This document shows, piece by piece, positions 9,410-39,578 of a DNA stretch of 49,684 nucleotides. The notes below the pieces were generated by a model, which was given only the letters and a program-made list of their open reading frames with translations, was not told where the DNA came from and did no database searches. Origin of the DNA: Spirogloea muscicola (taxonomy: Eukaryota > Streptophyta > Zygnematophyceae > Spirogloeales > Spirogloeaceae); contig WELB01000263.1 of the NCBI GenBank assembly GCA_009602725.1, forward strand, positions 46,563 through 96,246, given 5' to 3'. Made by a program: the position numbers and the translations under genes. How positions within the stretch are numbered: position 1 is the stretch's first letter; each line of letters starts with the position of its first letter.

Positions 9410-9800
9410 GAGCAGTTGTCAAGATTTTGACCTCAGCAAAGTAGTGTAAGAGCTTGACAGGATTCTCCATGCACATGATGCTCGTCACAGCCGCCCCATC
9501 GGTGGAGCAGAATGGGAGACCATGGGCATTGGGTACCAATATCTCTCTTATGAAGCAGCCAGCGAGGCCACAGGACGCTTTTAAATTCTGGCAGGGTGCC
9601 TTTAGAAAGGCGCGTGAAGGACTACTGCCTCAAGAGATCTCCAAGAGTAACAAGCAGTGGCTATCGTGGGCATGAAATTGTTTCACTGCCGGATCAGCCA
9701 TGGCGGCGAGCCAGTAAGGTTGCTGGAGGACACCATCCGTGCTACGAACATTTGGCTCCGCTCTCCGTTGTCTGTAGCGGCGACAATGGCACTGCTCACT
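9410..9800. other. Degenerate downstream region of copy C
   Basis: Parts resemble the DNA downstream of copies A and B, for example TTCTGGCAGGGTG near 9588 against the matching string near 19621. Reading frames do not stay open across copies, so I read this as decayed 3' sequence shared by the family, not a separate gene. Confidence 0.35.
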
Positions 9801-12235: not shown

Positions 12236-15200
12236 TTATGGCGTTGTATGCAATTTCACATTACAGAGCAGCTTCTGGAATTGGCCGTTATGAGCCACCA
12301 AGCTGAATTGGCGGATAGTGGCTGCATGGTCGTGGCCCTGTCCTTGACGTTGAAGCATCTTGCATATGAGGGTCTCTTCTTCTTCAAAGCAGGGCTCCAT
12401 TTGCAGCAACACGAGCAACAATTTGTACAAGCTCTCAGTTTCCGCTGTGAAAAATCTTTTGTGTTGGATCTGCTCGGCTATTGAGATGCTGTCTTGCAGC
12501 AACCTCTTTGCCTCCTCATAAAGGTGCTGCATGACGTGTAGCCTAGCCAGCTTATCCAGCATGCCAACTAAAATGACGTGTTCTGGTGTTCTGGTACTTC
12601 TGCCTCGAACAAGATTATGCAGTATTACCAGAGAGGCTTCGAGCAGACGACCTGCTTCTTGTAGCCGCGGCTCGTCTTCAATGCGCATGAGCAGGCCTGC
12701 ATAAATGACAGGTGCTTCAGCCATGACTTTGTGCTGGCACCCATCCTTCGATGCCGCAAAATCCACCACCTGGCGAAGTAGGTCCTCTGCCTCGGTGAGA
12801 TTGCCAATCTTCTCAAATTCGACGGCCAGGTCGATAAGCCTGTAAGGGTTGACGATCTCGGAGCGCTTCAAGATTGTGTAAGCCTCACATCACGTAGTCT
12901 CCGCCTCCATCAATTTATTCTGCTTCCTTAGAGAGGTGGCCAATGTGGTGAGGCTGAAGACAGCACCAGGGCTGCTCCGTCCGTGTAGCTCTTGGCGCAT
13001 TGCCAAGCTGTCGCGTGCATGCTCCGCTGCCTCTGCATAGCGGCCAACTTTTAGCAGGAGATTTGCCAAATGCTCAAATATCTGCAGACTCTGCACTTGG
13101 CCCCAGGTTTCTCTCTCAATGTTGACGGCCTGCTGAGCGAGTTCTACTGCTTCGTGGTACTTTCCTATTCTGCTGTTGATCATCATAAGCTGCCCAAGCG
13201 TTTACACGACCAACCTTGGCTCCTCACGCAAGCGCTTACTGATCTCCAGGGACTCCCGGCATGCCTGCTCTGCTTCTTCGTACTTGTCATTGAAGTCCAA
13301 GGCCCTGGCATGCGCCAGCAGTAAGTGGCTGGCGAGTTGCTCGGAGTCAGCCGTTTGCCTCTACAGCTCCAGTGCGTGCCGGCTCTGCTGCTCCGCTTCT
13401 GCGTGCTGTCCAAGCAGGATCAGCACAAAACACCTCCCTTCAGACACTAGGTGGCAGATGGCTGGAAAGGCCTGCAGCTGGTGCTCTGCCGCCCAAGCCA
13501 GGCGATCGGCAATCTGCCAGAGCCCCCCACAAAGACTGCCAATAGTTCCTCAAAGAGCACAAGTGAGGGGAGCCGAGAGCCGCTGCCAAGAGCGACATCA
13601 ATGGCATTGTGAAAGTGCTCGGGGTGTGTGTCTAGGTTGTCATAGAGCATGCAAAGGCTGGCCGCCATGGCTGTGCCAGCCTCTGCGCCGCCCTTGGCCT
13701 TTCCGTAGTCTTGTACAAGGCGGTGGAAGATGAGGAAGCCGCACCTGGCGCGCCTCGCCATGCCATACCGTACCAGCAATCGCTCCGCCTCCTCAACCCC
13801 AATCAATGCGTCTCCTCCTGTCAGTCCTCCCTCCTCCCTGATCCGCGAATCAGAAGCCAGGGCCAGCAGTGATGCTGGGATTGGTGCGTCAGCAAACCAG
13901 CCTGCGGCATGCACCATCTTGACTGCCAGCTCCTTGTGCGCAGCGGCAAAATCGACATTGCTCTGCAGCAGCTCGATGCTTGTATCCAAGAGTCGCAGGA
14001 GGTCGGGGTGCGTCCGAAAGAAGGGATCCATGGCCTCATTAACGAAGGTCCTTACACCTTCATTTTCCAAGCGTTGCAGAAGCTTTGAGGGTAGAATGCC
14101 ACCATGAGCAAGCATCCGCCGGCAGACAGCCAGGCTAAGCGTCAGGTATTCCAGCCGTGCGGCAAGTGGATGTGCTGCCTTTAGCTCGTCAGCAATCAGC
14201 TTCTCGTCGCCAAGCAGCAGCTCCATGGCTTCGCTGTGGGCCAGCTTCTCGATGTCTAATTCCTTGAAGCTGGCAACTCCGTACAGACGAGTTGTCATGA
14301 GGATGCAGCATGTCTCGCTATTCGGCAGCAACTCGACCAGCGTAGCATCAACGTGCTCTAGGTTGTCAAGGACCAGCAGCGTAGACCCGTGGCAGTCCTC
14401 AAGGGCCATCCGCACGGCTTTCAGACTCCGCTTTTCTGTGTCGCAGCCTGACATCGAGGCAGTTGAGGTGAGGACTCTCATGCACGACTGTGCAAGACAT
14501 TCCATCTCCACGGAAAAAGTGCAACCGCAATGTAGTCACAGTGGATTCTGAGAAGCTTGTGAGATATGCAGGTGGCATGGCGGCCACAGACATGAGCCAT
14601 CACCTGCAGGCAGAGTGTCCACGTCCTCGTTTCCTTCACCAAGCGTGAAGCCCAGCGGCTCGGCAAGGCCGAGGAACTCAGCCGCAAGCCTTGAGCTCGA
14701 GGCGTCCAGCCAGAAGATGCGCACAAAGTGGCGCTGGTGCAGATACACGTATGCAAGTGCGAGTTGCGTCTTGCCCATGCCGGCAAGGCCCCCGATGGCA
14801 ACACGATGCTGGGCCATCAGCAACGCGTGCAAGGCCTCCAGCTGCGGCTTGCGGCCAAGGAAGTCCACATTTGGCGGGAAAGGCGTGGTGTTGAGTGTGG
14901 TGAGGTCAGAAGGCGCTCGCATGCGATGCGCACGGCCTCGTCAATTGCACCGGTCCCATTCTTGCTTGAAGTCGCTCAGCTTGAGCATCGTCACGTTCGC
15001 CACGAGCGCAATGACGCGGCGCCACGCTGCCTCATCGCCGCCGTAGCGCTCCCACAGACGGCCGCCTTCCCAGCCGGCCTGGCTCCACCCGCCCCGCTGC
15101 TCCACGATGTCGTCAGCATTGACGTTCCTCGCGCTGAGGCCCACAAGGATGGGCAGCACGCAGCGCCGGTCAAGGAAGCATTCCAGCTCTCGCATGCAGT

Positions 15201-15600
15201 CGCTGCTGGCCAAAGAAATTGGGGGAGAACACGACAACGCCCAGGCGCGCCGTCTCCATGGCAGTGTGCAAACACGGTGGGCGAGTCGTCGCGGGCCTGC
15301 AACCACAGGTCGAGGAAGACGGAGAGGCGCTGGCGCTCCAGCTCCAGCCCCAGGAATGTGCAAAATTCGGGCTTGGTGTCCGACCCGCGGTGGCACAGGA
15401 ACACGTCGCATGGCTTGGCGGTCGAACCCGAGCAGCCTGGCGTGGGCCGCCAACGCGGCCAGCGGCGGCCGGTCATGGCGGGACGCGGCCCCGAGGCGAG
15501 CGGGCTCGCGCGCGGGGGGCTGGCGCAGCGGCGGGTGGGGGGGGGGCGGCGCGAGATACTGCTGCTCGCCGGGCGCATGGCGGCGGGCCCTCGCTCCTTC
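12236..15600 (-). pseudogene. TIR-NB-ARC-TPR (NLR-like) gene with frame breaks
   Basis: Plant and bacterial proteins of this layout sense infection and signal through an NAD-cleaving TIR domain; activity here is not known. On the minus strand: TIR start CDVFLCHRGSDTKPEF (about 15410), then METARLGVVVFSPNFF (15259) and CMRELECFLDRRCVLPIL with the usual catalytic-site glutamate; NB-ARC P-loop GLAGMGKTQLA (about 14780) with FWLDASS; intron about 14603-14448; Walker B TLLVLDNLEHV; CCILMTTRLYGV; IFHRLVQDYG at the MHD position; then tetratricopeptide repeats (13450-12240), for example GKYHEAVELAQQAVNIE. Damage: frame changes near 15265, 15210, 14945, 14900 and in a G run near 13540; TAG 13361-13363, TAA 13202-13204 and TGA 12890-12892 inside TPR repeats. 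Homology continues past each break, so loss is recent or partly sequencing error. Domain calls are firm. Confidence 0.8.
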
Positions 15601-16970: not shown

Positions 16971-17431
16971 CTTCCAGAAGCTGGTAGTGTGGGAGCGTCC
17001 GGGCCGGCGGAGAGCGCGGAGCGGGATGCACGGGGAATATCCGCCGCAGAGGCGGCGGCCGGTGGCGGGCGGGGACCGCCCGCTGAGCCCGTGGCGATAG
17101 CTGTCCCGCCCTACATCATCCGGGCCCACACATAAAGGAAACGAAGCAGCTCCGAACCACTCAGTGCCCCCTGCTAAGCAGCCTCAGGTCAAAGAAACTG
17201 GGTTCCTGGAAGTGGGTCCGCTGGCCAGAGCCAGAGGCAGCAGCGAGGGCTCTGCCTGCACGCAGGTGCAGCAAGCGGGCCATAGACCGCTGCAGCGAGA
17301 CGGCCAAGCGCATATCAAGGCCCCACTCGCGCCCGAGAGTGCGGAGCGGGATGCACGGGGAACATCCGCCGCAGCGGCGGACATTCCCCGGATATCCGCC
17401 CGCACGCACCCACACTACCAGCTTCTGGAAG
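16971..17431. repeat. Segment bounded by a perfect 23-bp inverted repeat
   Basis: CTTCCAGAAGCTGGTAGTGT plus GGG at 16971-16993 is the exact reverse complement of 17409-17431. Inside lie a second, imperfect inverted pair around GGGATGCACGGGGAA and a minus-strand retrotransposon end (17175-17330). It could be a foldback element or two opposed copies of one repeat. Confidence 0.6.
17175..17330 (-). mobile_element. Retrotransposon ORF2 C-terminal fragment
   Basis: Minus-strand frame reads MRLAVSLQRSMARLLHLRAG, then RALAAASGSGQR and FDLRLLSRGH. This is the same C-terminal block as the other fragments, about 50 residues long. Confidence 0.75.
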
Positions 17432-17454
17432 ACCGCTGCAGCGAGACGGCCAAG

Positions 17455-17464
17455 CGCATATAAG
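17455..17464 (+). promoter_or_regulatory. TATA-like box upstream of four-helix gene A
   Basis: GCATATAAGGGC occurs at 17456-17467, upstream of the transcribed-looking 5' region of gene A. The 25 bases before it (CTGCAGCGAGACGGCCAAGC) are retrotransposon coding sequence in reverse. A sister block at 17287-17334 has ATATCAAGG in place of ATATAAGGG. Promoter function is inferred from position and sequence only. Confidence 0.4.
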
Positions 17465-17514
17465 GGCCCCACTTGCGCCCCCCGGACGCCACTCTCCTTC
17501 GCTTCCCGCCCCCG

Positions 17515-17595
17515 CGCTCCCGCCGCCGCCGCCACCGCCGCATCCGCCGCCGCTGCCGCCGCCGCCGCCTCCGCCGCCGCCAGCGGAACCGCCAC
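17515..17595 (+). repeat. CCG triplet repeat in 5' region of gene A
   Basis: Imperfect CCG/CCA triplets, matched in the second unit at 24528-24590. It probably lies in the 5' UTR. Confidence 0.6.
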
Positions 17596-17981
17596 GCCGT
17601 CGCCGGAGGCGGGTCCGAGCAGCAGCCGGCTGACCGGATGCTCTGCGCCCTCACAGCGGGCAGCATCTCCGACAATTCTAGATTCCATAAGCTCGTGTCT
17701 ACCTGGACCACCATCTCCTAAGCATCTCAGTGCCTCAGTGCCTCCTCGTGGAGGCGGCCGCGCTCAAATGTGTTCACCCACAGGGTAAGCCCAGCCTGTC
17801 TCCTAAGGCAAAGCGCAGTCGCGTCCTGGGTGCATCTCACTTGCCTCCTGCATCAGGGACGCGCCAACCGCACAGCATCTACCTGCACAGTATCAACCTC
17901 TACTTTTCAAAACTGCTGGTGGCACAGAATCTACCTGCATGGTATCAACTTATCATATCCACAAGTGCCGTTGGCAGCAAT

Positions 17982-19099
17982 ATGTCTACTGGAAACCAGG
18001 GCTGCAGTAGCTTGCTAGAGGACCCTCAAGATGCGGATGAAGCTTTTTAAAGGATCGTTAGCAGATTGAGAAAGAAACATGTGAAGAGCCTTCATCCCAA
18101 GAAGATGTCAAAATTCTGGGGCGACTGCGTATCCGAGGCCGTCTCCGTGCCCTTAGAGCTCCTGGGAGAGGTATTGGCTGTTTAAACCCATCAGCCTGGC
18201 TGTGAATGGCAGCTCGCATCCGCTGCTATATAGATCAGAGCAAATTGGTCAAAAGTCGGTGAGCAATCAGCCTGCATGTAAGGAGCTTTGACCTGACTTA
18301 TCTGCTCATCGCCACTCATTGTCCAGACACCAGCTGTCGAACATGTGCATAATCTCTAGATGTTATTTGTCACTTACACTGATCCTCTCTTAAGCTCAAC
18401 TTAGGGATGCTGTTGGCATTGTGTTCCGCAGGTTCCGCAGGTGGGCGTGGCCTTCACTATCATGCATAGACTATTGGAGCTTCGAAAGATCAAGAAGGCC
18501 GTCGATGATGACATGGTCAGGACGTCTGGTTACCTCCAGCAGCTTGACTTAAGAGTCAAGGGACTGATAGATACTGGCAATAAAGAAGTGATGAAAATTG
18601 CACATGAGCTAGCCTTCGTTATCAGCTGCACTTTCATCTTCATCTTCACCTACATGGAGCATTGGCACTTCAACTTCCTTAGGAAGGTCAGCAGCAGAAA
18701 GGAAGGGGCAGAAGTACTAACGTGGTGCCACGCTTTCTTAAGCTCGTGAAGCGACTGTTGCCTGCTTGCTCTTGATTTGCACGTCTTGAGTTGCTGCATT
18801 TAAATTGCAGGTATTGGGCAGCTTGTATTGTCTTGTTAGCTATTTTGTATCATCTCATCGCTGTAAAGGCCTGTACATAACCACAAATATCCTGTTCCTC
18901 TCAATTGAGAATGGACTTATTGCACTTACAGGCCCTAGCGGCACGGGCCTACAAGATCAGGCTGGCCATGTACGAGAAAGAAATCGAACGGCTGATAGGA
19001 CTTCTCAATTTGGACTTGCTAAGAAGTGGCCAGAAGAGGAATGATTCTAATTGGCAGCAAGTAATGTCGCTCCTGAGGGGATTGGTACCTGCTTGTTAG
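17982..19099 (+). CDS. Four-helix-bundle (HeLo/MLKL-like) gene, copy A
   Basis: Three coding exons: 17982-18170, 18432-18686 and 18932-19099, joined in phase 0. The central exon encodes VPQVGVAFTIMHRLLELRKI then a helical domain ending FIFTYMEHWHFNFLRK; the last begins ALAARAYKIRLAMYEKEIER. The PxVGxAFxILxxLLxL start, a second amphipathic helix and an xYKxRLxxYxxxI end resemble the N-terminal domains of MLKL and HeLo proteins, which insert in membranes or seed death signalling; I infer this from pattern only. An in-frame TAA (18048-18050) lies where copy B has a CAA codon. Translation could instead start at ATG 18105 and keep the whole bundle (162 residues). Compared with B it lacks about 200 bases including B's start codon. 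A 5' UTR exon probably ends near 17783 (AGG|GTAAGC). Coding exons diverge from B far more than introns do. Confidence 0.55.
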
Positions 19100-19813
19100 T
19101 ACAGTGCAAGCCCTGCAGGTAACAGGAATATTACCGTCTTGTCAAGCATTTGTCAAGTCTGATGAGCATGCTCGTGGTGAAAGTTTGTGTACCTAATCAA
19201 AGACTTGACTGCTCCTCTTACTTCAGACTGAGCTTGTTGCACTCTGCAGGCTCTTGTGGCACAGACCTACAAGCTGAGGCTGGCAACACTCAAAACAATC
19301 AGCTGCAATTGAGATACGTCTCTGGGACCCGCAAGTGCATGGCCAGGAAAAAGGTGGTGCTAGGCGGCAGCTCAGTGGCGTTGTTCCAAGGACTGGAACT
19401 GTGGCAGGGAGGCAAGGCAACCAGCGGTTGATTCATGGTAGCGCGAAGAAGGTCATGAGCCATCTCCCTAAATCTCTGCAGATATCGGAAAGAACTTGGC
19501 TCAGTTTCACATGCACATGACATCTCGTGACAGCCTTGTAGCAACCGCCCAGGCAGAATGGAAGACAACAGTTTGCCGAAATCTCTACCTTGAAGCAGCG
19601 CTGCAAGAAGCTTTTGCAATTCTGGCAGGGTGTCATAAGAAGGCATGTGAGGACAACTGCTGCAAAGTTTTCGGGTGCGAGGAGTGTTTGATCCAGACAT
19701 GGAAGTATTGCAAGTTGGTGTTGGTGGAGCCTATTTTCCTGCAAGATCGTACTGATGCAGCATTGACCAAGGTGCTGGCCCATACGTCATTCCTATTGGC
19801 TGCTAGCAAATGA
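19100..19813 (+). pseudogene. Relic exon and decayed 3' sequence of family copy A
   Basis: After TGCAG at 19249 comes GCTCTTGTGGCACAGACC, encoding ALVAQTYKLRLATLKTISCN and then TGA. It is a tandem duplicate of the last exon of gene A. The following DNA resembles copy C downstream sequence but loses frame. It diverges from the matching B segment at only about 6%, the same as introns, so it is not under the selection that acts on the real exons. Confidence 0.5.
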
Positions 19814-19974
19814 GCTACACAATATATCGACCGCTGCAGGGGTAGATTCTGCGGTTGGCAGTTTACGGCTTATGCAATTGAGGCAGAGACATAGATCTGA
19901 AAACGTTGAGCCCATTCAGCCGCTGAATCCTTGTGACCTCCCATTGCATATGTTAGAAGGTTGACTTCAGCATT

Positions 19975-22222
19975 CCCATGTACTGTCTGTGCCCTTATCA
20001 TTGTTTGGCTACATTTTCGTATTATTCATTCATCCTGCCGCTTGCATTGCATAATAACTAATTTCGTTGAAGTAAAACCTTTCAAAGGGCTACTCTTGGC
20101 AGCTCTCATGCTCAGTCTCGCAAGATCTTTGTGCGAGTGAAAGCGCTGTTGCAGAGCTTGGGTAGTTCTGTGAGAGGCCAGCCCAGGAAACGAATGGACA
20201 AAGGAGCATTGCCGATAGTCAACGCCCTTTCATCCACGTCGAAAAGCTAGATTCCATATCACCACAAAGTATTCATTTTGAGCGGAAATTGTCAGCTCCT
20301 CGAGCTTGGGCAAAGCAGCTAAGCCTCTTGCGCAAGACCACGTCATATGATGCAAGATGCATATGCAAGTCTAGATGGAAAACCTTCTGTGACTGCCCTG
20401 GTCGCCTGCGGATTGCCCGCAGGCCCACTGTGTTTGCCATAAGAGTTGACACTTAAGAATGCTTCTTTGGCGAAGGATTCTACTGCATACTAGGCCATCG
20501 TGAAATTGAGGTTGTAGAGCCTCTTGAGAGCACTGATTGTAGTAATTATTGGGGCGATTTGAGAGTCTCAAGAAGATGAAGGTCACAAAGCAAGATACCA
20601 AGCATGGGTTCACGAATAGCAGCTGTTCGACTCATCTCGTACAGAGTACCTGTTGCAAGAAAGTTGCCAGCAAGCTGTTCATACCTGGATGCAGGGTATT
20701 GTATCATGTTCAGGTGTTAACTTACATAGAGTTCAGCACAAACAGCCCACGCCCCGTCCAAAAACAAGATCAGCTTGCTATTATTTGCAGCTCGGCTTGC
20801 AGGTCTACAGCATTCTATTATCTGAAATGTGGGGGACGGTTGTGAACCTCTGCCTTGCACCCCTGCACAGCTCGTGCGTTAGCTGCTGGCTCAAACTTTG
20901 TCTTTGCAGGCTCTACTCTGAAGCACCAATCTGCAAATCCTGCTGGCAATCTGGCTATTCTTAGGCGCCTCCATCCAACCATTTGCCACAACAAGAACCT
21001 GGAGCTGGATGGACCTTCGCGGCCAAGGCCAGGGCTCCTATATTGGGCGCACCCGAGTGCATGCACCTTCTCAGCAAGACCTTGACATCAGTGTGCTGCG
21101 TCTCAACCTGCGTGTGTGACATTGGGCACGAAGATATGACTGTTTGCTGAAGAGACGCCGTTCACGATAAACAGCACCATTTAACAGCCAGAGCACGCAG
21201 ATTACAGGTGCCGCTCCTTGGCCTGGAAACCTTACACTTTAAACCATGCTTTCTGCTGTGGCCAAGCATTACTCCCCACCGCAATAATCTCCGCAGAGCC
21301 TCGTACAAGCGTTGAGACTCCACATGCCCCCTGTCAAGAATCTGCGCGCAGATTGTGAGATTCTCCCCCGCAGCAGCAGCTCGGGCGGCTAGTAATGCAG
21401 CCCAAGGGAAGGCATTGCTCATATTCTCTGAGTAGAAGGGCCAGCTGCCATCAGCCTGATGAGGTAACACACGCTGTACGTCAGACAAGGACCTCGAGCC
21501 CTTGCCCCATATACCGCGCTATTCCTTGCAGGACACCAGCAACGTCGGATGGCGAGAGTGGCGGAGCTAGAGATTGGCAGCAATGATATTGCATTGCAGG
21601 GGCAACCCCTGCGTGCAGCTTGACATGTCTCCAGAGCTAGGGGTATTCAAAGCCACTTCAGTCTTAGATACAATGAAGCAACAGCTGCTCACTTGTTCCA
21701 AAGAGCAACAGCAACAGCAGACAGGTGCGTGCAGCAATGCAGCTATTATTGGCTGCTACACAGGCGGCGGCTATGCATGGCCTAGCCCAATGGCATCCGA
21801 TACACTGGGCGAGAATGGCAATAGCAGCAAAGGAGGGTAGATTACTAGGTGTCTTTCTAGAAGGCCCAATTTTCAATCGGTATTTTGGATCAGCCAGTAG
21901 CAACATGTTCTGGTCAGAAAGGCATTCCCTGCATAGAAATTATCAATGCTTCAGGAGGAGCTTTGCCTGATGCTTGCAGCCAATCTACGGCTAAATAGGC
22001 ATGTCAAAGGTGGCAAGCAACGGGGTTACCACTGCTGCACATTGCCAATACAAGCGGCATGGTTAACAAAAGCTAGCCACATAGCCATAGTTGCTGCGGA
22101 GTATCATAGGAACTTACAAGTATGTACAGTGACCGGCAAGTAGAAAGACTGTGTAGAGTCCCTCCACGTCCTTGTTGAAGAGCTTATCACATCATATCAA
22201 TATCTCTTTAAGTAGCCATATC
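19975..22222. other. No gene firmly recognised in first copy of the identical segment
   Basis: A minus-strand frame at 21488-21162 reads AGENLTICAQILDRGHVESQ and looks helical, but belongs to no family I know. A hairpin-like fragment (GTGAGAGGCCAGCCCAGGAAAC) lies near 20170. The remainder has only short frames. The second copy (27183-29430) is the same. Confidence 0.35.
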
Positions 22223-22948
22223 TTAGAGTCTCATTTCCATCCAGTGGTGCTTGATTCCAGCATCCAGAAACACCTCTTCTGATTGAAATATGTAGCCCAG
22301 GGACAAATAGAAGTTGCAAGCATCCAGCTGTGCTCCTAGGTAGCGACCGGCATAAGCCAACTGATGTGCCTCGTTCTGGGGAAAGCCACCGTGAGAGATG
22401 GCCTGTGCCATTGGCTGAGCACCTCCTCTGTCCTGCCATCCCTACCTGTGAGGCAGTGTTATAGCATGTTGGAAAGGTAAAGCTCACATGAATGGCAAGC
22501 ATAGTGGCCCTAACAACCCCCTGACGTCGAAAGTCCGGCGAAGTGGCAATGCGCCCGACCTTGGCAAGCTCACCTGGCGCCTTGTAAGTCAGGAGCCTAC
22601 CTGTAGGCGTAAAAATAGGAGATGGACTTGTAAGTTGCCCGTGCTCTGTGTGGAGTTCAAATTGCTACAATCCACCAGTGGAGGTCTTGACAAAGTCCTT
22701 GCTATGAACTTATCCGCAGCTTTTGCTTTTGCTTTTGCTCAGAGATCCCATCAGCCTTCTGCTGGTCACACACTGAGCTGATCCTTGAATCATGGGGAGG
22801 TCAGCTGCACCAGAGGCAGCACACCTGTGCCGGCTGGGACACTATTCACAAAAGCCAAGAAATGAGCAGCTCGTTTTGTTGCTTCGTGCACCAGGGCTCC
22901 TTCGTCAAACTCGTCAACTTCCTCTTCTGGACAAGGAACATGCACGAA
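22223..22948 (-). CDS. GNAT acetyltransferase (ElaA-like), first copy, 5' end unresolved
   Basis: Transfers an acetyl group from acetyl-CoA; ElaA-type substrates are unknown. Three exons join in phase on the minus strand: about 22948-22825 (EFDEGALVHEATKRAAHFLA, FVNSVPAGTG), 22600-22488 (RLLTYKAPGELAKVGRIATS, then PDFRRQGVVRATMLAIH) and 22414-22223 (QAISHGGFPQNEAHQLAYAG, then FYLSLGYIFQSEEVFLDAGI), stop TAA. RRQGVV fits the acetyl-CoA loop (Q/RxxGxG/A), and FYxSLGY...E.FLDAGI.H..M is the ElaA-type C-terminus. Intron donors are GTGTGC and GTGAGC. The first ~40 residues of the family are not located; they should lie right of 22948. The body looks intact. It is transcribed opposite to the four-helix genes and duplicated with them. 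Confidence 0.75.
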
Positions 22949-23039
22949 CTAATGAGTAACATCATCAACACGAGGCAATCAGGTTTTCCATTGCTTGCCT
23001 TCATGAGGCTGCTACACAGAACTTTATGAAGGGGCACCT

Positions 23040-23640
23040 CCTAACAGTGTAAAGGCTATGACCAGCCAATGAGGCTAATGAGGGGAAGACGTGCCAACCA
23101 CCTGAAGGCCGTAAGTTTGATACGAGAAATTAAGTTGGCAATTCTCAAAGCAGCAGCGCGAGCCCTTATTCACTTAAGATGAGAGCCCAAGGGAGTGCTA
23201 AAAGTTGGCACCCCAACCTTCTGGAACTCCCTGACCAATCACAAAGACGTCATGCCGGATCCGCCTGTATTGTCCGAACTGCAGTCAACAGCGGATCGGA
23301 CGGTATATGTTGTGCTAAGTACTTCTCACGGGCATTGCAACATGAGCATTGGCATGCGACGAGTCCTGGCGTCATAGAAAATATCAAAGGATGTCCGGCG
23401 AACTCGGCCTGGCGGCGACTAGGCAGCTGGCACTGGCCGCTAGGTCCTAAGCGCTACCGGAAATGAGCTGGAACGAAGCAGTAGTTGACGATCAGCACGG
23501 CGGCATGCAGATCTGGCATCCAGAAGCGTAGAACTCACTCCTCCTGTTTAGCTACTTTCACGACTGTCACGCTGCTCATTGCGCCGGATTATGCGCGCCG
23601 CTCTGGCCGCACACAGCAGCCATAGTCCGCCGCGGGAGCG
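23040..23640. other. No gene firmly recognised
   Basis: This DNA may hold the first exon and promoter of the GNAT gene. A (CGG)n run follows at 23660-23692. Only short frames were seen. Confidence 0.3.
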
Positions 23641-23859
23641 CCCCGGACACAGCAAGCTGCGGCGGCGGCGGCGGCGGCGGCGGAGACGGCAATCTGACCT
23701 GCTGCGGCAGCACCAGCTCTGGCCTGGACAAGCGGGGCGGAATGAAGCCCGCACCGTCAAGGGACCGAGTCACCAACAGGTAGTACTGGTTTTCGCGCAC
23801 CGTCCATCCGACAGGCGATCGATCAGCCAGCCAGCAGCCAGCAGATCGCGGCCGTCCGG

Positions 23860-24007
23860 AGAAAGGGCTCGCCCATTGAGGATAGGGGCAGGAAAAAGCC
23901 AGCCCAGAAAAGAATGAACGAAGGACGAGAAGGGGCCAGGGGAAGTACGAAGAATAACAAGCACAGAAAAGAAGCGAAGCAGGTACGAAGCACTCAGTAA
24001 CCCCTGC
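23860..24007 (-). mobile_element. Retrotransposon 3' tail, minus strand, cut by the gap
   Basis: Reverse complement reads GGGGTTACTGAGTGCTTCGT (ORF stop region), then the 3' UTR and the hairpin GGCTGGCTTTTTCCTGCC with a GGGCGAGCCC box. The intact continuation is at 31202-31465. The contig therefore ends inside a dispersed repeat. Confidence 0.7.
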
Positions 24008-24517
24008 NNNNNNNNNNNNNNNNNNNNNNNNNNNNNNNNNNNNNNNNNNNNNNNNNNNNNNNNNNNNNNNNNNNNNNNNNNNNNNNNNNNNNNNNNNNNN
24101 NNNNNNNNNNNNNNNNNNNNNNNNNNNNNNNNNNNNNNNNNNNNNNNNNNNNNNNNNNNNNNNNNNNNNNNNNNNNNNNNNNNNNNNNNNNNNNNNNNNN
24201 NNNNNNNNNNNNNNNNNNNNNNNNNNNNNNNNNNNNNNNNNNNNNNNNNNNNNNNNNNNNNNNNNNNNNNNNNNNNNNNNNNNNNNNNNNNNNNNNNNNN
24301 NNNNNNNNNNNNNNNNNNNNNNNNNNNNNNNNNNNNNNNNNNNNNNNNNNNNNNNNNNNNNNNNNNNNNNNNNNNNNNNNNNNNNNNNNNNNNNNNNNNN
24401 NNNNNNNNNNNNNNNNNNNNNNNNNNNNNNNNNNNNNNNNNNNNNNNNNNNNNNNNNNNNNNNNNNNNNNNNNNNNNNNNNNNNNNNNNNNNNNNNNNNN
24501 NNNNNNNNNNNNNNNNN
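24008..24517. other. Assembly gap (510 N)
   Basis: A run of N joins two contigs. It lies exactly at the end of the identical duplicated segment. Confidence 0.99.
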
Positions 24518-24527
24518 CTTCCGATCT
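24518..24527. other. Illumina adapter remnant at contig edge
   Basis: CTTCCGATCT, the 3' end of the standard Illumina adapter, is the first sequence after the gap. The homologous position in the first unit (about 17524-17533) has plain CCG repeat, and alignment starts at the next base (17534/24528). Confidence 0.85.
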
Positions 24528-24922
24528 ACCGCCGCACCCGCCGCCGCTGCCGCCGCCGCCGCCTCCGCCGCCGTCAGCGGAACCGCCACGCCGTCGCCGG
24601 AGGCGGGTACGAGCAGCAGCCGGCTGACCGGATGCTCTGCGCCCTCACAGCGGGCAGCATCTCCGACAATTCTAGATTCCATAAGCTCGTGTCTACCTGG
24701 TCCACCATCTCCTACGCATCTCAGTGCCTCAGTGCCTCCTCGTGGAGGCGGCCACGCTCAAATGTGTCCACCCACAGGGTAAGCCCAGCCTGTCTCCTAG
24801 CGCAAGCGCAGTCGCGTCTTGGGTGCATCTCACTTGCCTCCTGCATCAGGGACGCGCCAACCGCACAGCATCTACCTGCACAAAATCAACCTCTACTTTT
24901 CAAAACTGCTGGTGGCAGCAAC

Positions 24923-26320
24923 ATGATATTTGAGGAGCACGGCGGCAGGAGCTCGCGCACGAACGATTCGGAAGGCGGCAGTAGCTCGCCAGTGGACCCT
25001 GCGGACAGTGCGGATGTCGATTCACTTGCCTTACGCATCCGACGCGCGCTACCCGAAGGAATACTACTGCATGACATAATGGTATACCATGGTGTGCCAC
25101 AAACGCAGCAAGCGCAACTCGCACAGAATCTACATGCACAGTATCAACTTATCATATCCACAAGTGCCGTTGGCAGCCCTGTAAGAAATCAAGATCAGGG
25201 CCGCAGTAGGTTGCCAGAGCTCCCTCCGAATGCGGTTGCCAAATTACAAGAATACGCTAGCGCAGTGGGTCAGCAGACTTTGGGGAGCCTTTCTCCCAAG
25301 AAGATCTCAAATATCTGGGCCGACAGCGTACGCCTCGCCGTCTCCAACACGTTAGAGATCCTGGCGACGGTATTGGCTGTTTCAACCCATTAGCCTGGCT
25401 GTGAATGGCAGCTCGCATCCGCTGCTATATAGATCAGAGCAGATTGGTCTAAACTCGGTGGGCAATTAGCCTGCATGTAAGGAGCTTTGACCTGACTTAT
25501 CTGCTCATTGCCACTCATTGTCCAGACACCAGCTGTCGAACATGTACATAATCTCTAGATGTTATTTGTCACTTACACTGATGCTCTCATAAGCTCAACT
25601 TAAGAATGCTGTTGGCATTGTGTTGTGCAGGCTCCGCAGGTGGGCATGGCCTTCGCTATTCTGAATGTATTATTGAGGCTTCAAGAGATCCAGACGGCCG
25701 TCAATCGAGATATGGTCATGACGTTATATTACCTCCTGGCGCTTCAAACAAGAGTGCTGGAAGTGATGCATACTGGCGATGCAAATGTGGAGGAGGATGC
25801 ACGTCAGCTAGCCGTCGCTATCAGCTGCACTGTCATCTTCATCTATACCTACCTGAGGCGTTGGCGCTTCAACTATCTTAGCAAGGTCAGCAGCAGAATG
25901 GAAGGGGCAGAAGTACTAACATGGTACCACGCTTTCTTAAGCTCGTGAAGCGACTGTTGCCTGCTTGCTCTTGATTTGCACGTCTTGAGTTGCTGCATTT
26001 AAATTGCAGGTATTGGGAAGCTTGTATTGTCTTGTTAGCTATTAGCTGTTAGCTATTTTGTATCATCTCATCGCTGTGAAGGCCTGTACCTATCCACAAA
26101 TATCCTGCTCCTTTCAATTGAAACTGGACTTTAATTGCACTTACAGGCCCTAGTGGCACGGGCTTACAAGATTAGGCTGGCAACATACAAGGAAGAAATC
26201 ACACGGCGAGTGGACCTTCTCTTTTTTGACCTGCACATAATTGGCCAGGAGAGGAATGATTCTAATAGGCAGCAAATGTTGTCGCTCCTGAGGCGATTGG
26301 GTGGTCCTGCTTGTTGTTAA
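24923..26320 (+). CDS. Four-helix-bundle (HeLo/MLKL-like) gene, copy B
   Basis: Best-preserved copy: exons 24923-25369 (149 codons), 25631-25885 (85) and 26147-26320 (57 plus TAA), all phase 0, giving 291 residues. Residues 1-130 are polar and probably disordered at first (SSRTNDSEGGSSSPVDPADS), then helical. The bundle follows: LAVSNTLEILATAPQVGMAF, LNVLLRLQEIQTAVNRDM, a long second helix, CTVIFIYTYLRRWRFNYLSK and ALVARAYKIRLATYKEEITR. This order matches MLKL N-terminal and fungal HeLo-type domains, which drive membrane-linked cell death in other organisms; the match is by pattern, not by search. The start is the first ATG after the acceptor GGTGGCAG|CAAC. No kinase, NB-ARC or other C-terminal domain follows, so it would act as a stand-alone bundle or adaptor. 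Exons are far more diverged from copy A than introns are. Confidence 0.6.
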
Positions 26321-27182
26321 CCTGCAGACCCTGCAGGTAACAGGAATACTACCGTCTTGTCAAGCAGTTGCCAAGTCTGACGAGCATGCTTATGGTGAAA
26401 GTTTGTACCTAACCAACGACTTGACTGCTTCTCTTACTTCTGACTGAGCTTGTTGCACTTTGCAGGCTCTTGTGGCACAGACCGACAAGCTTAGGCTGGC
26501 AACACACAAAACAATCAGCTGCAGTTGAGATATGTCTTTGGACCCGCAAGTGCATGGCCAGGAAAAAGGTGGTGCTAGACGGCAGCAAGTGGCGTTGTTC
26601 CAAGGACTGGAACTGTGGCAGGGAGGCAAGGCCACCAGCGGTTGTTTCATGGTAGCGCGCAGAAGGTCATGAGCCATCTCCCTAGATCTCGGCAGATTTG
26701 GGAAAAGCTTGGCTCAGGTTCACATGCAAATGACATCTCATAGACAGCCTTGAAGCAACCGCCCAACGGCAGAATGAAAGACAACAGATTGCCGAAGTCT
26801 CTACCTTGAAGCAGGGCTGCAAGAAGCTTTTGCAATTCTGGCAGAGTATCATAAGAAGGCATGTGAAGGATAACTGCTGCAAAGTTTTCAGGTGTGACGA
26901 GGAGTGGTTGTTCCAGACATGGAAGTATTGCAAGTTGGTGTTGGTGGAGCCTATTTTCCTGCAAGATTGTACTGATGCAGCTTTGACCAAGGTGCTGGCC
27001 CATACGTCATTCCTATTGTGAGCTACACAATGTATCGACCGCTGCAGGGGCAGATTCTGCTGTTGGCAATTTCCGGCACATGCAATTGAGGCAGAGACAT
27101 AGATCTGAAGACGTTGAGCCCTTTCAGCCGCTGAATCCTTGTGACCTCCCATTGCATATGTTAGAAGGTTGACTTCAGCATC
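26321..27182 (+). pseudogene. Relic exon and decayed 3' sequence of family copy B
   Basis: The duplicate last exon starts at 26466 after TTTGCAG and reads ALVAQTDKLRLATHKTISCS, then TGA. It differs from the copy A relic at about 4 of 64 bases. Downstream frames are broken differently in A and B (for example, B lacks one G near 26542). Confidence 0.5.
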
Positions 27183-30100
27183 CCCATGTACTGTCTGTGC
27201 CCTTATCATTGTTTGGCTACATTTTCGTATTATTCATTCATCCTGCCGCTTGCATTGCATAATAACTAATTTCGTTGAAGTAAAACCTTTCAAAGGGCTA
27301 CTCTTGGCAGCTCTCATGCTCAGTCTCGCAAGATCTTTGTGCGAGTGAAAGCGCTGTTGCAGAGCTTGGGTAGTTCTGTGAGAGGCCAGCCCAGGAAACG
27401 AATGGACAAAGGAGCATTGCCGATAGTCAACGCCCTTTCATCCACGTCGAAAAGCTAGATTCCATATCACCACAAAGTATTCATTTTGAGCGGAAATTGT
27501 CAGCTCCTCGAGCTTGGGCAAAGCAGCTAAGCCTCTTGCGCAAGACCACGTCATATGATGCAAGATGCATATGCAAGTCTAGATGGAAAACCTTCTGTGA
27601 CTGCCCTGGTCGCCTGCGGATTGCCCGCAGGCCCACTGTGTTTGCCATAAGAGTTGACACTTAAGAATGCTTCTTTGGCGAAGGATTCTACTGCATACTA
27701 GGCCATCGTGAAATTGAGGTTGTAGAGCCTCTTGAGAGCACTGATTGTAGTAATTATTGGGGCGATTTGAGAGTCTCAAGAAGATGAAGGTCACAAAGCA
27801 AGATACCAAGCATGGGTTCACGAATAGCAGCTGTTCGACTCATCTCGTACAGAGTACCTGTTGCAAGAAAGTTGCCAGCAAGCTGTTCATACCTGGATGC
27901 AGGGTATTGTATCATGTTCAGGTGTTAACTTACATAGAGTTCAGCACAAACAGCCCACGCCCCGTCCAAAAACAAGATCAGCTTGCTATTATTTGCAGCT
28001 CGGCTTGCAGGTCTACAGCATTCTATTATCTGAAATGTGGGGGACGGTTGTGAACCTCTGCCTTGCACCCCTGCACAGCTCGTGCGTTAGCTGCTGGCTC
28101 AAACTTTGTCTTTGCAGGCTCTACTCTGAAGCACCAATCTGCAAATCCTGCTGGCAATCTGGCTATTCTTAGGCGCCTCCATCCAACCATTTGCCACAAC
28201 AAGAACCTGGAGCTGGATGGACCTTCGCGGCCAAGGCCAGGGCTCCTATATTGGGCGCACCCGAGTGCATGCACCTTCTCAGCAAGACCTTGACATCAGT
28301 GTGCTGCGTCTCAACCTGCGTGTGTGACATTGGGCACGAAGATATGACTGTTTGCTGAAGAGACGCCGTTCACGATAAACAGCACCATTTAACAGCCAGA
28401 GCACGCAGATTACAGGTGCCGCTCCTTGGCCTGGAAACCTTACACTTTAAACCATGCTTTCTGCTGTGGCCAAGCATTACTCCCCACCGCAATAATCTCC
28501 GCAGAGCCTCGTACAAGCGTTGAGACTCCACATGCCCCCTGTCAAGAATCTGCGCGCAGATTGTGAGATTCTCCCCCGCAGCAGCAGCTCGGGCGGCTAG
28601 TAATGCAGCCCAAGGGAAGGCATTGCTCATATTCTCTGAGTAGAAGGGCCAGCTGCCATCAGCCTGATGAGGTAACACACGCTGTACGTCAGACAAGGAC
28701 CTCGAGCCCTTGCCCCATATACCGCGCTATTCCTTGCAGGACACCAGCAACGTCGGATGGCGAGAGTGGCGGAGCTAGAGATTGGCAGCAATGATATTGC
28801 ATTGCAGGGGCAACCCCTGCGTGCAGCTTGACATGTCTCCAGAGCTAGGGGTATTCAAAGCCACTTCAGTCTTAGATACAATGAAGCAACAGCTGCTCAC
28901 TTGTTCCAAAGAGCAACAGCAACAGCAGACAGGTGCGTGCAGCAATGCAGCTATTATTGGCTGCTACACAGGCGGCGGCTATGCATGGCCTAGCCCAATG
29001 GCATCCGATACACTGGGCGAGAATGGCAATAGCAGCAAAGGAGGGTAGATTACTAGGTGTCTTTCTAGAAGGCCCAATTTTCAATCGGTATTTTGGATCA
29101 GCCAGTAGCAACATGTTCTGGTCAGAAAGGCATTCCCTGCATAGAAATTATCAATGCTTCAGGAGGAGCTTTGCCTGATGCTTGCAGCCAATCTACGGCT
29201 AAATAGGCATGTCAAAGGTGGCAAGCAACGGGGTTACCACTGCTGCACATTGCCAATACAAGCGGCATGGTTAACAAAAGCTAGCCACATAGCCATAGTT
29301 GCTGCGGAGTATCATAGGAACTTACAAGTATGTACAGTGACCGGCAAGTAGAAAGACTGTGTAGAGTCCCTCCACGTCCTTGTTGAAGAGCTTATCACAT
29401 CATATCAATATCTCTTTAAGTAGCCATATCTTAGAGTCTCATTTCCATCCAGTGGTGCTTGATTCCAGCATCCAGAAACACCTCTTCTGATTGAAATATG
29501 TAGCCCAGGGACAAATAGAAGTTGCAAGCATCCAGCTGTGCTCCTAGGTAGCGACCGGCATAAGCCAACTGATGTGCCTCGTTCTGGGGAAAGCCACCGT
29601 GAGAGATGGCCTGTGCCATTGGCTGAGCACCTCCTCTGTCCTGCCATCCCTACCTGTGAGGCAGTGTTATAGCATGTTGGAAAGGTAAAGCTCACATGAA
29701 TGGCAAGCATAGTGGCCCTAACAACCCCCTGACGTCGAAAGTCCGGCGAAGTGGCAATGCGCCCGACCTTGGCAAGCTCACCTGGCGCCTTGTAAGTCAG
29801 GAGCCTACCTGTAGGCGTAAAAATAGGAGATGGACTTGTAAGTTGCCCGTGCTCTGTGTGGAGTTCAAATTGCTACAATCCACCAGTGGAGGTCTTGACA
29901 AAGTCCTTGCTATGAACTTATCCGCAGCTTTTGCTTTTGCTTTTGCTCAGAGATCCCATCAGCCTTCTGCTGGTCACACACTGAGCTGATCCTTGAATCA
30001 TGGGGAGGTCAGCTGCACCAGAGGCAGCACACCTGTGCCGGCTGGGACACTATTCACAAAAGCCAAGAAATGAGCAGCTCGTTTTGTTGCTTCGTGCACC

Positions 30101-31215
30101 AGGGCTCCTTCGTCAAACTCGTCAACTTCCTCTTCTGGACAAGGAACATGCACGAACTAATGAGTAACATCATCAACACGAGGCAATCAGGTTTTCCATT
30201 GCTTGCCTTCATGAGGCTGCTACACAGAACTTTATGAAGGGGCACCTCCTAACAGTGTAAAGGCTATGACCAGCCAATGAGGCTAATGAGGGGAAGACGT
30301 GCCAACCACCTGAAGGCCGTAAGTTTGATACGAGAAATTAAGTTGGCAATTCTCAAAGCAGCAGCGCGAGCCCTTATTCACTTAAGATGAGAGCCCAAGG
30401 GAGTGCTAAAAGTTGGCACCCCAACCTTCTGGAACTCCCTGACCAATCACAAAGACGTCATGCCGGATCCGCCTGTATTGTCCGAACTGCAGTCAACAGC
30501 GGATCGGACGGTATATGTTGTGCTAAGTACTTCTCACGGGCATTGCAACATGAGCATTGGCATGCGACGAGTCCTGGCGTCATAGAAAATATCAAAGGAT
30601 GTCCGGCGAACTCGGCCTGGCGGCGACTAGGCAGCTGGCACTGGCCGCTAGGTCCTAAGCGCTACCGGAAATGAGCTGGAACGAAGCAGTAGTTGACGAT
30701 CAGCACGGCGGCATGCAGATCTGGCATCCAGAAGCGTAGAACTCACTCCTCCTGTTTAGCTACTTTCACGACTGTCACGCTGCTCATTGCGCCGGATTAT
30801 GCGCGCCGCTCTGGCCGCACACAGCAGCCATAGTCCGCCGCGGGAGCGCCCCGGACACAGCAAGCTGCGGCGGCGGCGGCGGCGGCGGCGGAGACGGCAA
30901 TCTGACCTGCTGCGGCAGCACCAGCTCTGGCCTGGACAAGCGGGGCGGAATGAAGCCCGCACCGTCAAGGGACCGAGTCACCAACAGGTAGTACTGGTTT
31001 TCGCGCACCGTCCATCCGACAGGCGATCGATCAGCCAGCCAGCAGCCAGCAGATCGCGGCCGTCCGGAGAAAGGGCTCGCCCATTGAGGATAGGGGCAGG
31101 AAAAAGCCAGCCCAGAAAAGAATGAACGAAGGACGAGAAGGGGCCAGGGGAAGTACGAAGAATAACAAGCACAGAAAAGAAGCGAAGCAGGTACGAAGCA
31201 CTCAGTAACCCCTGC
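27183..31215. repeat. Duplicated segment, second copy (identical to 19975-24007)
   Basis: See first copy. On this side the sequence continues without a gap into the retrotransposon ORF end (CCCCTGC|TAAGCAGCCTCAGG), so this copy is the contiguous one. Confidence 0.9.
29431..30156 (-). CDS. GNAT acetyltransferase (ElaA-like), second copy
   Basis: Same three exons as the first copy, shifted by 7208: about 30156-30033, 29808-29696 and 29622-29431, stop TAA. No difference was seen in exons or introns. If the duplication is real these are two identical genes; if it is an assembly error there is only one. Confidence 0.75.
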
Positions 31216-31465
31216 TAAGCAGCCTCAGGTCAGAGAGACCCCAGGTTCCTGGAAGCGGGTCCCCTGGCCAGAGCCAGAGGCAGCAGCGAGGGCTCTGCCT
31301 GCACGCAGGTGCAGCGCGCGGGCCATAGACCTCTGCAGCGAGACGGCCAAGCGCATGCGGTACACCTGCGCTAGCGACCCTGCTGCATGGGAGTTCACCG
31401 GCTCCCCATGGAAGCGGCGGACAATGGCGTGGCGTGAGAGCTGGTTGAGCAGCTCGAGTCCAGAG
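31202..31465 (-). mobile_element. Retrotransposon ORF2 C-terminal fragment with 3' tail
   Basis: Minus strand reads LLNQLSRHAIVRRFHGEPVN, then GSLAQVYRMRLAVSLQRSMA and RALAAASGSGQGTRFQ, with stop TGA at 31202-31204. It lies about 270 bases upstream of the SerRS-like start codon. Confidence 0.75.
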
Positions 31466-33929: not shown

Positions 33930-34440
33930 GTTCATCCTTTTTTGGGCTGGCTTTTCCAGCCCCTATCCTCGATATGCGAGCCCTTTCTTAGTTACCCCCC
34001 AGCCGCCCTCAGGCAATTCCGTGTGTTAAAACAACAAAAGGGGCCCTCGGGGGCCCCCTCCCCGCCGTATTCGGCGCGGGCAGCTCTCATGGCCCGGCCA
34101 GGCCCCACTCCGAACTGGCGGGCTTCACCACACCAGGTTAGAGAGAAGGGCTCGCCCATTGAGGATAGGGGCTGGAAAGAGAGAGAAGGGCTCGCCCATT
34201 GAGGATAGGGGCTGGAAATAGCCAGCCCAGAAAAGAATGAACAAAGGACGAGAAGTGGCCAGGGGAAGTACGAAGAACAAAAAACACGAAAAAGAAACGA
34301 AGCAGCTACGAAGCACTCAGTAACCCCTGCTAAGCGAACTGCGCGCCCATAGAGAAGAAGGGCTGGCAAAGCCAGCCCAAAAAAGAATGGACATTGTCCA
34401 AAGCCAAAGAAAGAGGAGCCGGAGAAAGGACTACACTACA
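33930..34440. repeat. Retrotransposon tails in opposite orientations around a GC palindrome
   Basis: A plus tail (GGGCTGGCTTTTCCAGCCCC at about 33948) faces minus tails at 34140-34215, where a 44-base unit (GAGAAGGGCTCGCCCATTGA, then GGATAGGGGCTGGAAA) is directly duplicated. Between them, 34041-34058 is the palindrome-like GGGGCCCTCGGGGGCCCC. Confidence 0.6.
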
Positions 34441-38870: not shown

Positions 38871-39560
38871 TACTTTCATGTTGTTGCGCCGTCCGGGCCT
38901 TTCAGACCTTCTTCATGCCTTTGGGCTGACCTCTCACCAGGACCTCGTCACTTGCTTTCAGGCTGGCTTTTCACAGCCTCGCCCCCTTTGGAAGAGCCAC
39001 TATTTCTCACCCTTTGGATGAGCTTCCTTCTCACAGCTACTGCCTTACATTGGATGAGCTATTCCTCCTATACGACGGAAAAGCTTCATATTGAATTGTG
39101 CAAGCGGTCCAGGGCTGACCGCGAACTACTGACTAGCAGCTTGCCCGGATCCGCTACAATACCCACTTCAACGGAGCCATAGACCAGGCAAAATTTGTAT
39201 TTAACTGGCTGGCTTCTACAGCTGCCCCCCATCGCTGGAGTGTCTTGCATAGCTGTGTGTGTTGGCACCTTCCGGCCATTTGGACCTTTGTTCATTCTGT
39301 CTGGGCTGGCATTCCACAGCCCCTTACACTAAGGAAAGAAACAGCTCCCGAATATAGGGCAATGGCTGTGAGAGGCCACTTCCCTTTGACAACAGCTGCC
39401 GCATGTCTAAGCAAACAGGAGTTGCGCCGAAAAGAGGGAAACTCTTCCAGTAGAAGGCGATCGCTGTAATTGCCAGCCCAGAAAAAGAACGAACGAAGGG
39501 GGGAGGGCGCCAAAAGTTGGGCCAGGGGAAGCACAAAGAAAAACAAGCACAAAGAGAAAC
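38871..39560. repeat. Hairpin-tail mosaic
   Basis: Plus-oriented units near 38960, 39035, 39210 and 39300 face minus-oriented units near 39360, 39455 and 39510. Each keeps a GGCTGGC/GGCTGTGAG core, with poorer conservation than the arrays at 6-7 kb. No gene was seen. Confidence 0.5.
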
Positions 39561-39578
39561 GAAGCAGCTACGAAGCAC

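What the first reader, a model, noticed from the sequence alone, without database searches (positions are those of the whole stretch)
17982..26320. Coding exons of four-helix genes A and B diverge about five times more than their introns
Aligned by eye, the central exon (18432-18686 against 25631-25885) has about 65 differences in 255 bases. 47 of 85 codons change and only 4 changes are silent. The last exon gives roughly 18 replacement against 4 silent changes. The intron between exons 1 and 2 has about 13 differences in 260 bases, the next intron about 11 in 245, and the 5' region about 9 in 290. Neutral DNA is thus about 3-5% apart while protein sequence is about half replaced. This pattern is known from venom, immune-receptor and gamete-recognition genes and means strong diversifying selection or exon-specific exchange.
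Basis: partly seen in the sequence, partly recalled or inferred. Interest (0 to 1): 0.92.

Follow-up and report, generated by a model that had tools for sequence, protein, structure and literature searches.

The report
Fast-evolving exons in immune-like genes
Two neighbouring copies of a small, apparently helical gene have kept similar introns while about half of their protein sequence changed, and relatives in the same genome tie the gene to plant-type immune proteins, including an EDS1-like domain that the papers read here place only in seed plants.

Summary
Observation confirmed. A–B exon 2 differs at 65/255 sites, introns at 26/506. A third copy, C, on another contig shows the same contrast with A (exons 154/614, introns 44/500), so it does not rest on the A/B pair, which may be a false duplication.

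Interpretation partly supported. Codon likelihood gives omega 2.3 (159 codons, three copies, p=0.0002). The same exon in three multidomain paralogues is under purifying selection (omega 0.04–0.11). But introns are a poor neutral yardstick: exon dS is 0.16–0.19, and A–C third positions match downstream DNA. Only about 2.3-fold is selection; the rest reflects older exons beside homogenised or constrained introns.

What it is: exons 2–3 match the N-terminal part of two paralogues that end in an EDS1_EP domain (PF18117, E 5e-13 and 6e-12). Broken EP relics follow A and B. A TIR–NB-ARC–TPR gene lies head-to-head with A.

Most likely these are truncated, diversifying helical immune executors or decoys derived from a helix-bundle–EP protein. 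No function was tested.

The parts
17980..18170 (+). Gene A exon 1 region; frame from ATG 17982 meets TAA 18048-18050, next in-frame ATG used here 18105
   Evidence: 68/191 differences to B
18171..18431 (+). Gene A intron 1 (GT..AG)
   Evidence: 15/261 vs B, 24/260 vs C
18432..18686 (+). Gene A exon 2, 85 codons, core of the helical domain
   Evidence: 65/255 vs B, 63/255 vs C; omega 2.68 over three copies; 34% over 82 aa to exon 2 of the helix-bundle-EP protein Q, E 9e-10
18687..18931 (+). Gene A intron 2
   Evidence: 11/245 vs B
18932..19099 (+). Gene A exon 3, stop at 19097-19099
   Evidence: 34/168 vs B; 45% over 42 aa to exon 3 of Q, E 7e-5
19750..19839 (+). EP-domain relic behind gene A, frame broken
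   Evidence: tblastn of the EP protein, 50% over 30 aa, E 8e-4; further EP-like words in other frames (by eye)
24923..25369 (+). Gene B exon 1 (ATG 24923)
25370..25630 (+). Gene B intron 1
25631..25885 (+). Gene B exon 2
25886..26146 (+). Gene B intron 2
26147..26320 (+). Gene B exon 3, stop TAA 26318-26320
26737..27047 (+). EP-domain relic behind gene B, spread over two frames
   Evidence: tblastn, 41% over 83 columns plus 48% over 33, E 5e-10
19975..24007 (.). Downstream part of unit A, identical to 27183-31215 of unit B, ends at the assembly gap
27183..31215 (.). Downstream part of unit B, identical to 19975-24007
24008..24517 (.). 510 N gap between the units, followed by CTTCCGATCT, which looks like the end of a sequencing adapter
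   Evidence: adapter identity recalled
12236..15485 (-). TIR-NB-ARC-TPR gene, head-to-head with gene A, read in three frames (changes near 15213 and 13515)
   Evidence: tblastn of the C237 relative: 33% over 206, 52% over 611, 45% over 183 columns down to 12986; TPR by Pfam in two pieces, AAA_16 below cut-off, no TIR or NB-ARC profile match in the 6 window pieces given; P-loop motif 14793-14749, TIR motif 15410-15372

Best explanation
Genes A and B, and their relative C on another contig, are short stand-alone versions of a helical N-terminal domain. Full-length relatives in the same genome carry either an EDS1-type EP domain (two loci, Q and R) or NB-ARC and TPR domains (one locus, P). A and B descend from helix-bundle-EP genes: broken EP relics lie behind their stops; for C this is inferred from its kinship to A, since no EP relic was found in the 9.9 kb held. 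The three exons of the helical domain stay open in A (from ATG 18105), B and C and change amino acids at about 2.3 times the synonymous rate. Likely working (inferred): the helical domain is the executing part of a TIR-triggered immune or incompatibility pathway, like the CC-R/RPW8 or HeLo/MLKL bundles. Freed from the EP sensor, the stand-alone form acts as executor, decoy or inhibitor and diversifies in an arms race. Gene conversion or allelic recombination meanwhile homogenised introns and flanks between A and B but was selected against in the exons, so the exon/intron contrast is selection plus unequal homogenisation. Shown: exon/intron contrast, omega above 1, contrast with paralogues, EP/TIR/NB-ARC kinship. 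Inferred: immune role, executor mechanism, four-helix fold, conversion.
For: Exon/intron contrast in A-B and also in A-C and B-C. Omega 2.32, p = 0.0002, above 2 on all three branches (2.0, 2.8, 2.2), with wrong-frame controls. Same exon 2 in paralogues P, Q, R: 9, 15 and 16 differences in 228 nt, mostly third positions, omega 0.09, 0.11, 0.04, while their introns differ by 10-18%; over exons 1-3 their omega is 0.41, 0.31, 0.15. EP domain in Q and R: PF18117 49.7 and 46.0 bits, cut-off 23.1, over about 80 of 211 profile positions; PAD4 and EDS1 chains match Q at 9.5e-10 and 9.7e-9; 35 of 54 Q-R differences in the EP exon sit on third positions. EP relics behind A, B and E. TIR: 8 of 8 candidates match, 7 of them in a frame of the same reported length as a match to P's NB-ARC region (pairing by me); TIR, NB-ARC and TPR in one frame in 2 of 2 scanned (NB-ARC 22.7 and 23.8 bits, cut-off 23.5). 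Exons are star-like (private changes A 61, B 74, C 61), introns have fewer in A and B than in C (12, 13, 32), p = 0.0009.
Against: No transcripts. A has an in-frame stop in exon 1; copies D and E are broken; A and B have lost EP, so decay of the whole family is conceivable, though plain decay would not leave introns about five times more alike than exons. Only three usable copies and 159 codons; exon 3 alone is not significant and its A-B changes are even over codon positions (11, 10, 11). Adjacent changes are clustered in exon 1 (p = 0.007; exons 2 and 3 0.08 and 0.10), and multi-nucleotide mutations can inflate omega. One of five wrong frames also exceeded 1. Exon dS above intron divergence means that selection on amino acids alone does not explain everything. 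With D added, intron patterns hardly group A with B (AB|CD 5, AD|BC 4). No EP relic near C or D's own exons. No Pfam family reaches its cut-off in the helical domain and structure prediction was off, so 'four-helix executor' is by analogy.
Confidence: 0.5

Rival explanations
1. Positive selection is minor; the main cause is that exons are old (as old as the A-C split) while introns and flanks were homogenised between A and B by gene conversion, and introns are also constrained.
For: A-B: downstream 0/3836 in the tabulated blocks, introns 5%, dS 0.18; A-C: downstream 15%, introns 9%, dS 0.16. dS equal to intron divergence rejected for A-B exons 1-3 (p = 0.0003). Private-change proportions differ between exons and introns (p = 0.0009). 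Introns slower than downstream DNA in A-C (p = 0.0003).
Against: Omega is above 2 in all three pairs by ML (p = 0.003-0.004) and third positions change least in each pair over exons 1-3. Conversion would have had to spare three exons separated by introns of 245-261 bases.
Confidence: 0.28
2. A and B are not tandem paralogues but two haplotypes of one locus laid end to end by the assembler; the exon difference is then allelic hypervariability. (This concerns only how A and B relate and can hold together with the best explanation.)
For: 4033 identical bases end exactly at an N gap, with adapter-like letters at its edge: what two overlapping, unmerged contigs would look like.
Against: A dispersed repeat lies at both unit ends (17129-17313 vs 31170-31356, 89.8%), which fits tandem duplication by unequal exchange; the gap's odd size, 510, suggests an estimated positive distance (inference). 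The contrast is also seen with C on another contig.
Confidence: 0.35
3. Exon-only exchange templated by spliced RNA (cDNA) of a divergent family member, which replaces exons and leaves introns.
For: Change of rate at the two donor junctions, deep exon dS with shallow introns, different exon and intron histories.
Against: The change is weak at the two acceptor junctions (odds lowered from 0.07 for this). No donor with matching exon blocks was seen: exon patterns of A, B, C and D are star-like (AB|CD 13, AC|BD 10, AD|BC 8). Exchange alone does not give omega above 1.
Confidence: 0.05
4. A snoRNA-host-like gene whose introns are the product, so exons are free to drift.
For: Introns slower than downstream DNA in A-C and intron 1 still 67% alike in E.
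Against: Rfam over 17450-20100 gave only one chance-level match, E 4.7; exons exceed the downstream rate (A-C exon 2 63/255 vs 248/1651, p = 0.0002) and keep a frame free of stops in three copies.
Confidence: 0.04

Closest known systems
RPW8/HR stand-alone CC-R genes of land plants
   Same: Helical N-terminal domain found both alone and on NB-ARC proteins; PMC5039405 (passages read) reports more RPW8 than NBS pairs with Ka/Ks above 1, although most pairs are below 1
   Different: No RPW8 (PF05659) match in A, B, C, Q or in this genome at E 1; kinship here is to an EP-fused protein
EDS1/PAD4/SAG101 family
   Same: Relatives Q and R have an EP domain above the Pfam cut-off and match PAD4/EDS1 chains
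   Different: EP is fused to a helical domain instead of a lipase-like domain; A and B keep only relics
TIR-NB-ARC-TPR (TNP) receptors
   Same: Same domain order TIR, NB-ARC, TPR in the relatives on contigs 237 and 218
   Different: Here next to helix-bundle(-EP) genes; orthology to land-plant TNPs not tested
Accelerated-exon genes such as conotoxins (PMC3862624, passages read) and, recalled, snake phospholipases and MHC exons
   Same: Similar introns beside fast-changing coding exons
   Different: Helical domain with immune-type neighbours; signal peptides not tested here

Membership tests
Genes with accelerated (diversifying) exon evolution | dN/dS above 1 | tested here: met
   omega 2.32, p = 0.0002, 159 codons, 3 copies; NG86 1.55-1.72
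Genes with accelerated (diversifying) exon evolution | dS equal to intron or flank divergence | tested here: inconclusive
   third positions equal downstream DNA in A-C; dS exceeds introns in A-B exons 1-3 (p = 0.0003), not in exon 2 alone
Genes with accelerated (diversifying) exon evolution | polymorphism among strains | not testable with these tools
   one genome held
EDS1 family | EP domain (PF18117) | tested here: met
   in relatives Q and R only, over about 80 of 211 profile positions; A, B and E carry broken relics
EDS1 family | N-terminal lipase-like domain | tested here: not met
   290 aa of Q exons 1-3 match no Pfam family at E 10; the upstream limit of the gene is unknown
RPW8 / CC-R | RPW8 profile PF05659 | tested here: not met
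   none in A, B, C, Q nor in the genome at E 1
HeLo / MLKL four-helix bundle | four-helix fold | not testable with these tools
   structure prediction switched off; no profile over its cut-off, no PDB match below E 0.15
TNP (TIR-NB-ARC-TPR) | TIR, NB-ARC and TPR in one protein | tested here: met
   L026 and L024 frames (NB-ARC 22.7, just under, and 23.8, just over the cut-off of 23.5); the window copy matches by tblastn in three frames but only TPR passes Pfam there

The most novel reading that the evidence does not exclude
This genome, with a streptophyte-type Rubisco, no RPW8 match and EP found only in two helix-bundle fusions, holds a one-protein forerunner of the EDS1-helper-NLR module: a helical executor fused directly to an EP sensor, encoded near TIR-NB-ARC-TPR genes. 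The stand-alone executor copies A, B and C escaped from it and diversify exon by exon. EP would then predate seed plants and have begun as the switch of a helix-bundle executor.
Probability: 0.35. Interest if true: 0.93.

Novelty: new variant of a known kind. Interest (0 to 1): 0.8.

Why it matters
Similar introns beside racing exons is a known mark of conflict genes. What is new is where it sits: in a family that joins an EDS1-type EP domain to a helical, executor-like domain near TIR-NB-ARC-TPR genes. Passages read in PMC10834447, PMC9153377 and PMC11218826 state that EP proteins or the EDS1 family are missing outside seed plants. If the organism is indeed an alga of the land-plant lineage, the origin of the TIR-EDS1-helper pathway becomes directly testable.

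Tried and rejected
Intronic RNA: Rfam over 17450-20100 gave one match, E 4.7. Pfam on ten long ORFs of the window: 1 of 10 matched, TPR. Homologues of B (4279 candidates, none at E 1) and of the EP protein (1218 candidates, none at E 0.01) among 5.8 billion proteins; the search needs shared exact words, so this is weak evidence of absence. NB-ARC exon of P: 1 match at E 6e-7 (the best 8000 candidates scored). PDB by profile of the helical domain: best E 0.15.

Rows left out before counts: copies D (frameshifts, 98-base loss in exon 2) and E (stops) from the codon tests; P, Q and R cut to 80, 76 and 28 codons of exons 1-3, because P shifts frame near the end of exon 2; exon 1 used as 40 codons or, from A's later ATG, 22; for the A-C downstream rate the blocks between 19331 and 22000 were not used because C aligns there barely or badly (0/0, 38/84, 4/11, 23/46, 183/300). 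A-C outside those: 5' 41/252 and 22/186, after exon 3 24/222. Sampling other assembly gaps to test false duplication was dropped.
Full report
OBSERVATION. Gene A (exons ending 18170, 18432-18686, 18932-19099) and gene B (24923-25369, 25631-25885, 26147-26320) are two copies with GT..AG introns at the same places. A-B differences: exon 1 68/191, intron 1 15/261, exon 2 65/255, intron 2 11/245, exon 3 34/168, 5' stretches 7/252 and 9/193. Exons against introns: Fisher p = 2e-24. The change of rate is sharp at the two donor junctions and weaker at the two acceptor junctions.

WIDER ANATOMY. The two units align over 6.1 kb. Between 19100 and 19974 they differ by roughly 6-10%; from 19975 to 24007 they do not differ at all, and this stretch ends at a 510-N gap. 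A recent tandem duplication or conversion, or two haplotypes set end to end, would look like this. A dispersed repeat at both unit ends favours the former; the gap and the adapter-like letters favour the latter. I could not decide.

OTHER COPIES. The genome (153 Mb, 471 contigs) holds C on contig 218, D on 92 and a decayed E on 157; the searches score only the best candidates, so more may exist. A-C: exons 154/614, introns 44/500, downstream 248/1651 (22001-23816). So the exon/intron contrast does not depend on A-B. D has frameshifts and a 98-base loss in exon 2, E has stops; both were left out of codon tests.

SELECTION. Pairwise maximum likelihood over exons 1-3: omega 2.30, 2.29, 2.22 for A-B, A-C, B-C (p = 0.003, 0.003, 0.004); NG86 gives 1.72, 1.61, 1.55. 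Three-copy star model from A's ATG 18105: omega 2.32, LRT 13.8, p = 0.0002, 159 codons; by branch 2.0, 2.8, 2.2. Exon 2: 2.68 (p = 0.001); exon 3: 1.56 (p = 0.29); exon 1 (22 codons): 2.33 (p = 0.19). Wrong frames: 0.83, 0.68, 0.89, 1.76, 0.77; the 1.76 frame has the same third position as the true one by my bookkeeping. Adjacent changes are clustered in exon 1 (p = 0.007), less so in exons 2 and 3 (0.08, 0.10), a caveat.

WHY NOT FIVEFOLD. The introns are not a clean neutral standard. In A-C third positions (28/177) equal the downstream rate (p = 0.74) and introns are below it (p = 0.0003). In A-B dS is 0.18 with introns at 0.05; equality is rejected for exons 1-3 (p = 0.0003) and not for exon 2 alone (p = 0.10). 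Private changes are star-like in exons (61, 74, 61), while introns have few in A and B and more in C (12, 13, 32), p = 0.0009; with D added the introns hardly group A with B (5 against 4 sites). So A and B exons look as old as the A-C split, and introns and flanks look younger. Selection on amino acids plus homogenisation of what lies between the exons accounts for this, as is known for MHC introns (recalled). Exon exchange by spliced RNA is not excluded.

INTERNAL CONTROL. The same helical exon occurs in three multidomain paralogues: P (contig 157), Q (237) and R (92). There exon 2 differs at 9, 15 and 16 of 228 sites (P-Q, P-R, Q-R), mostly third positions, while introns differ by 10-18%; omega 0.09, 0.11, 0.04 for exon 2 and 0.41, 0.31, 0.15 for exons 1-3. 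The fast exons are thus a property of the stand-alone copies, not of the exon or the genome.

WHAT THE FAMILY IS. P continues into NB-ARC (26.0 bits, cut-off 23.5), and a frame just downstream carries TPR repeats; P's exon 2 shifts frame near its end, so P may be broken. Q and R continue into an EDS1_EP domain (E 4.7e-13 and 6.3e-12, about 80 of 211 profile positions); PAD4 and EDS1 chains match Q at 9.5e-10 and 9.7e-9. These are the only 2 EP matches in the genome at E 1; 0 of 14 control genomes match. Of 54 Q-R differences in the EP exon 35 sit on third positions. EP relics in broken frames lie behind A, B and E, and one more at 9463-9678; none was found behind C or D. A exon 2 matches Q exon 2 at E 9e-10 and B at 4e-5. 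So A and B, and by kinship C, descend from helix-bundle-EP genes.

NEIGHBOURS. TIR, NB-ARC and TPR share one frame on contigs 237 and 218. On 237 that gene opens about 1.8 kb from the visible start of Q, in the opposite orientation (my arithmetic); in the window one (minus strand, 15485 to 12236, in three frames) lies head-to-head with A; on 92 an NB-ARC match on the minus strand precedes R on the plus strand by about 5 kb. TIR matched at 8 of 8 candidates. RPW8: no match.

ORGANISM. Unnamed. Its Rubisco small subunit scores 184-186 bits with chains that I recall as Arabidopsis and tobacco, 150 with those recalled as Chlamydomonas, and best (197) with 9pvb_M, whose organism I did not see. With about 54% G+C in the window I infer a streptophyte alga; a seedless land plant is not excluded.

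LITERATURE. [quoted passage not shown] Listings for EDS1 or EP domain with green algae (5 of 5 listed), chlorophyte (25 of 40), streptophyte algae (15 of 31), Mesotaenium/Spirogloea (15 of 62), Klebsormidium (5 of 5) and non-seed plants from 2023 on (0 found) showed no title or abstract reporting an algal EP protein. bioRxiv and most subscription journals were not searched.

MECHANISM. Shown: contrast, omega, control, kinship. Inferred: an immune or incompatibility role, executor or decoy action, a four-helix fold, and homogenisation by conversion. Without transcripts or a structure I hold the best explanation at 0.5.

Noticed in passing
G000 contig 237:153680-155500 (L035, L044, L055, L063) and contig 92:179500-181500 (L046, L054, L064): Two helix-bundle-EDS1_EP fusion genes with few replacement changes between them, in a genome with a streptophyte-type Rubisco; EP is described as seed-plant-only in the papers read.
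   Followed up: partly
12236-15485 (-): TIR-NB-ARC-TPR gene head-to-head with gene A, read in three frames (changes near 15213 and 13515), so either broken or with small introns.
   Followed up: partly
9463-9678 (+): Another EP-domain relic (45% over 73 columns, E 7.5e-12) with a stop.
   Followed up: no
24008-24517: Gap of 510 N, followed by CTTCCGATCT (adapter-like) and preceded by 4 kb that recurs letter for letter 7.2 kb on: possible false duplication in the assembly.
   Followed up: partly
17129-17313, 23960-24007, 31170-31356, 34181-34335, 39472-39917: Dispersed repeat at the unit ends, possibly the substrate of the tandem duplication.
   Followed up: no
L018:4077-4327 (contig 157:302076-302326): Intron 1 of the family is still 67% alike in the decayed copy E, and introns evolve slower than downstream DNA in A-C; no RNA family explains it.
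   Followed up: partly
19209-19288 and 26395-26509: A second, short copy of the start of exon 3 (ALVAQTYKLRLAT in A) after an acceptor-like site: possible fourth or alternative exon.
   Followed up: no
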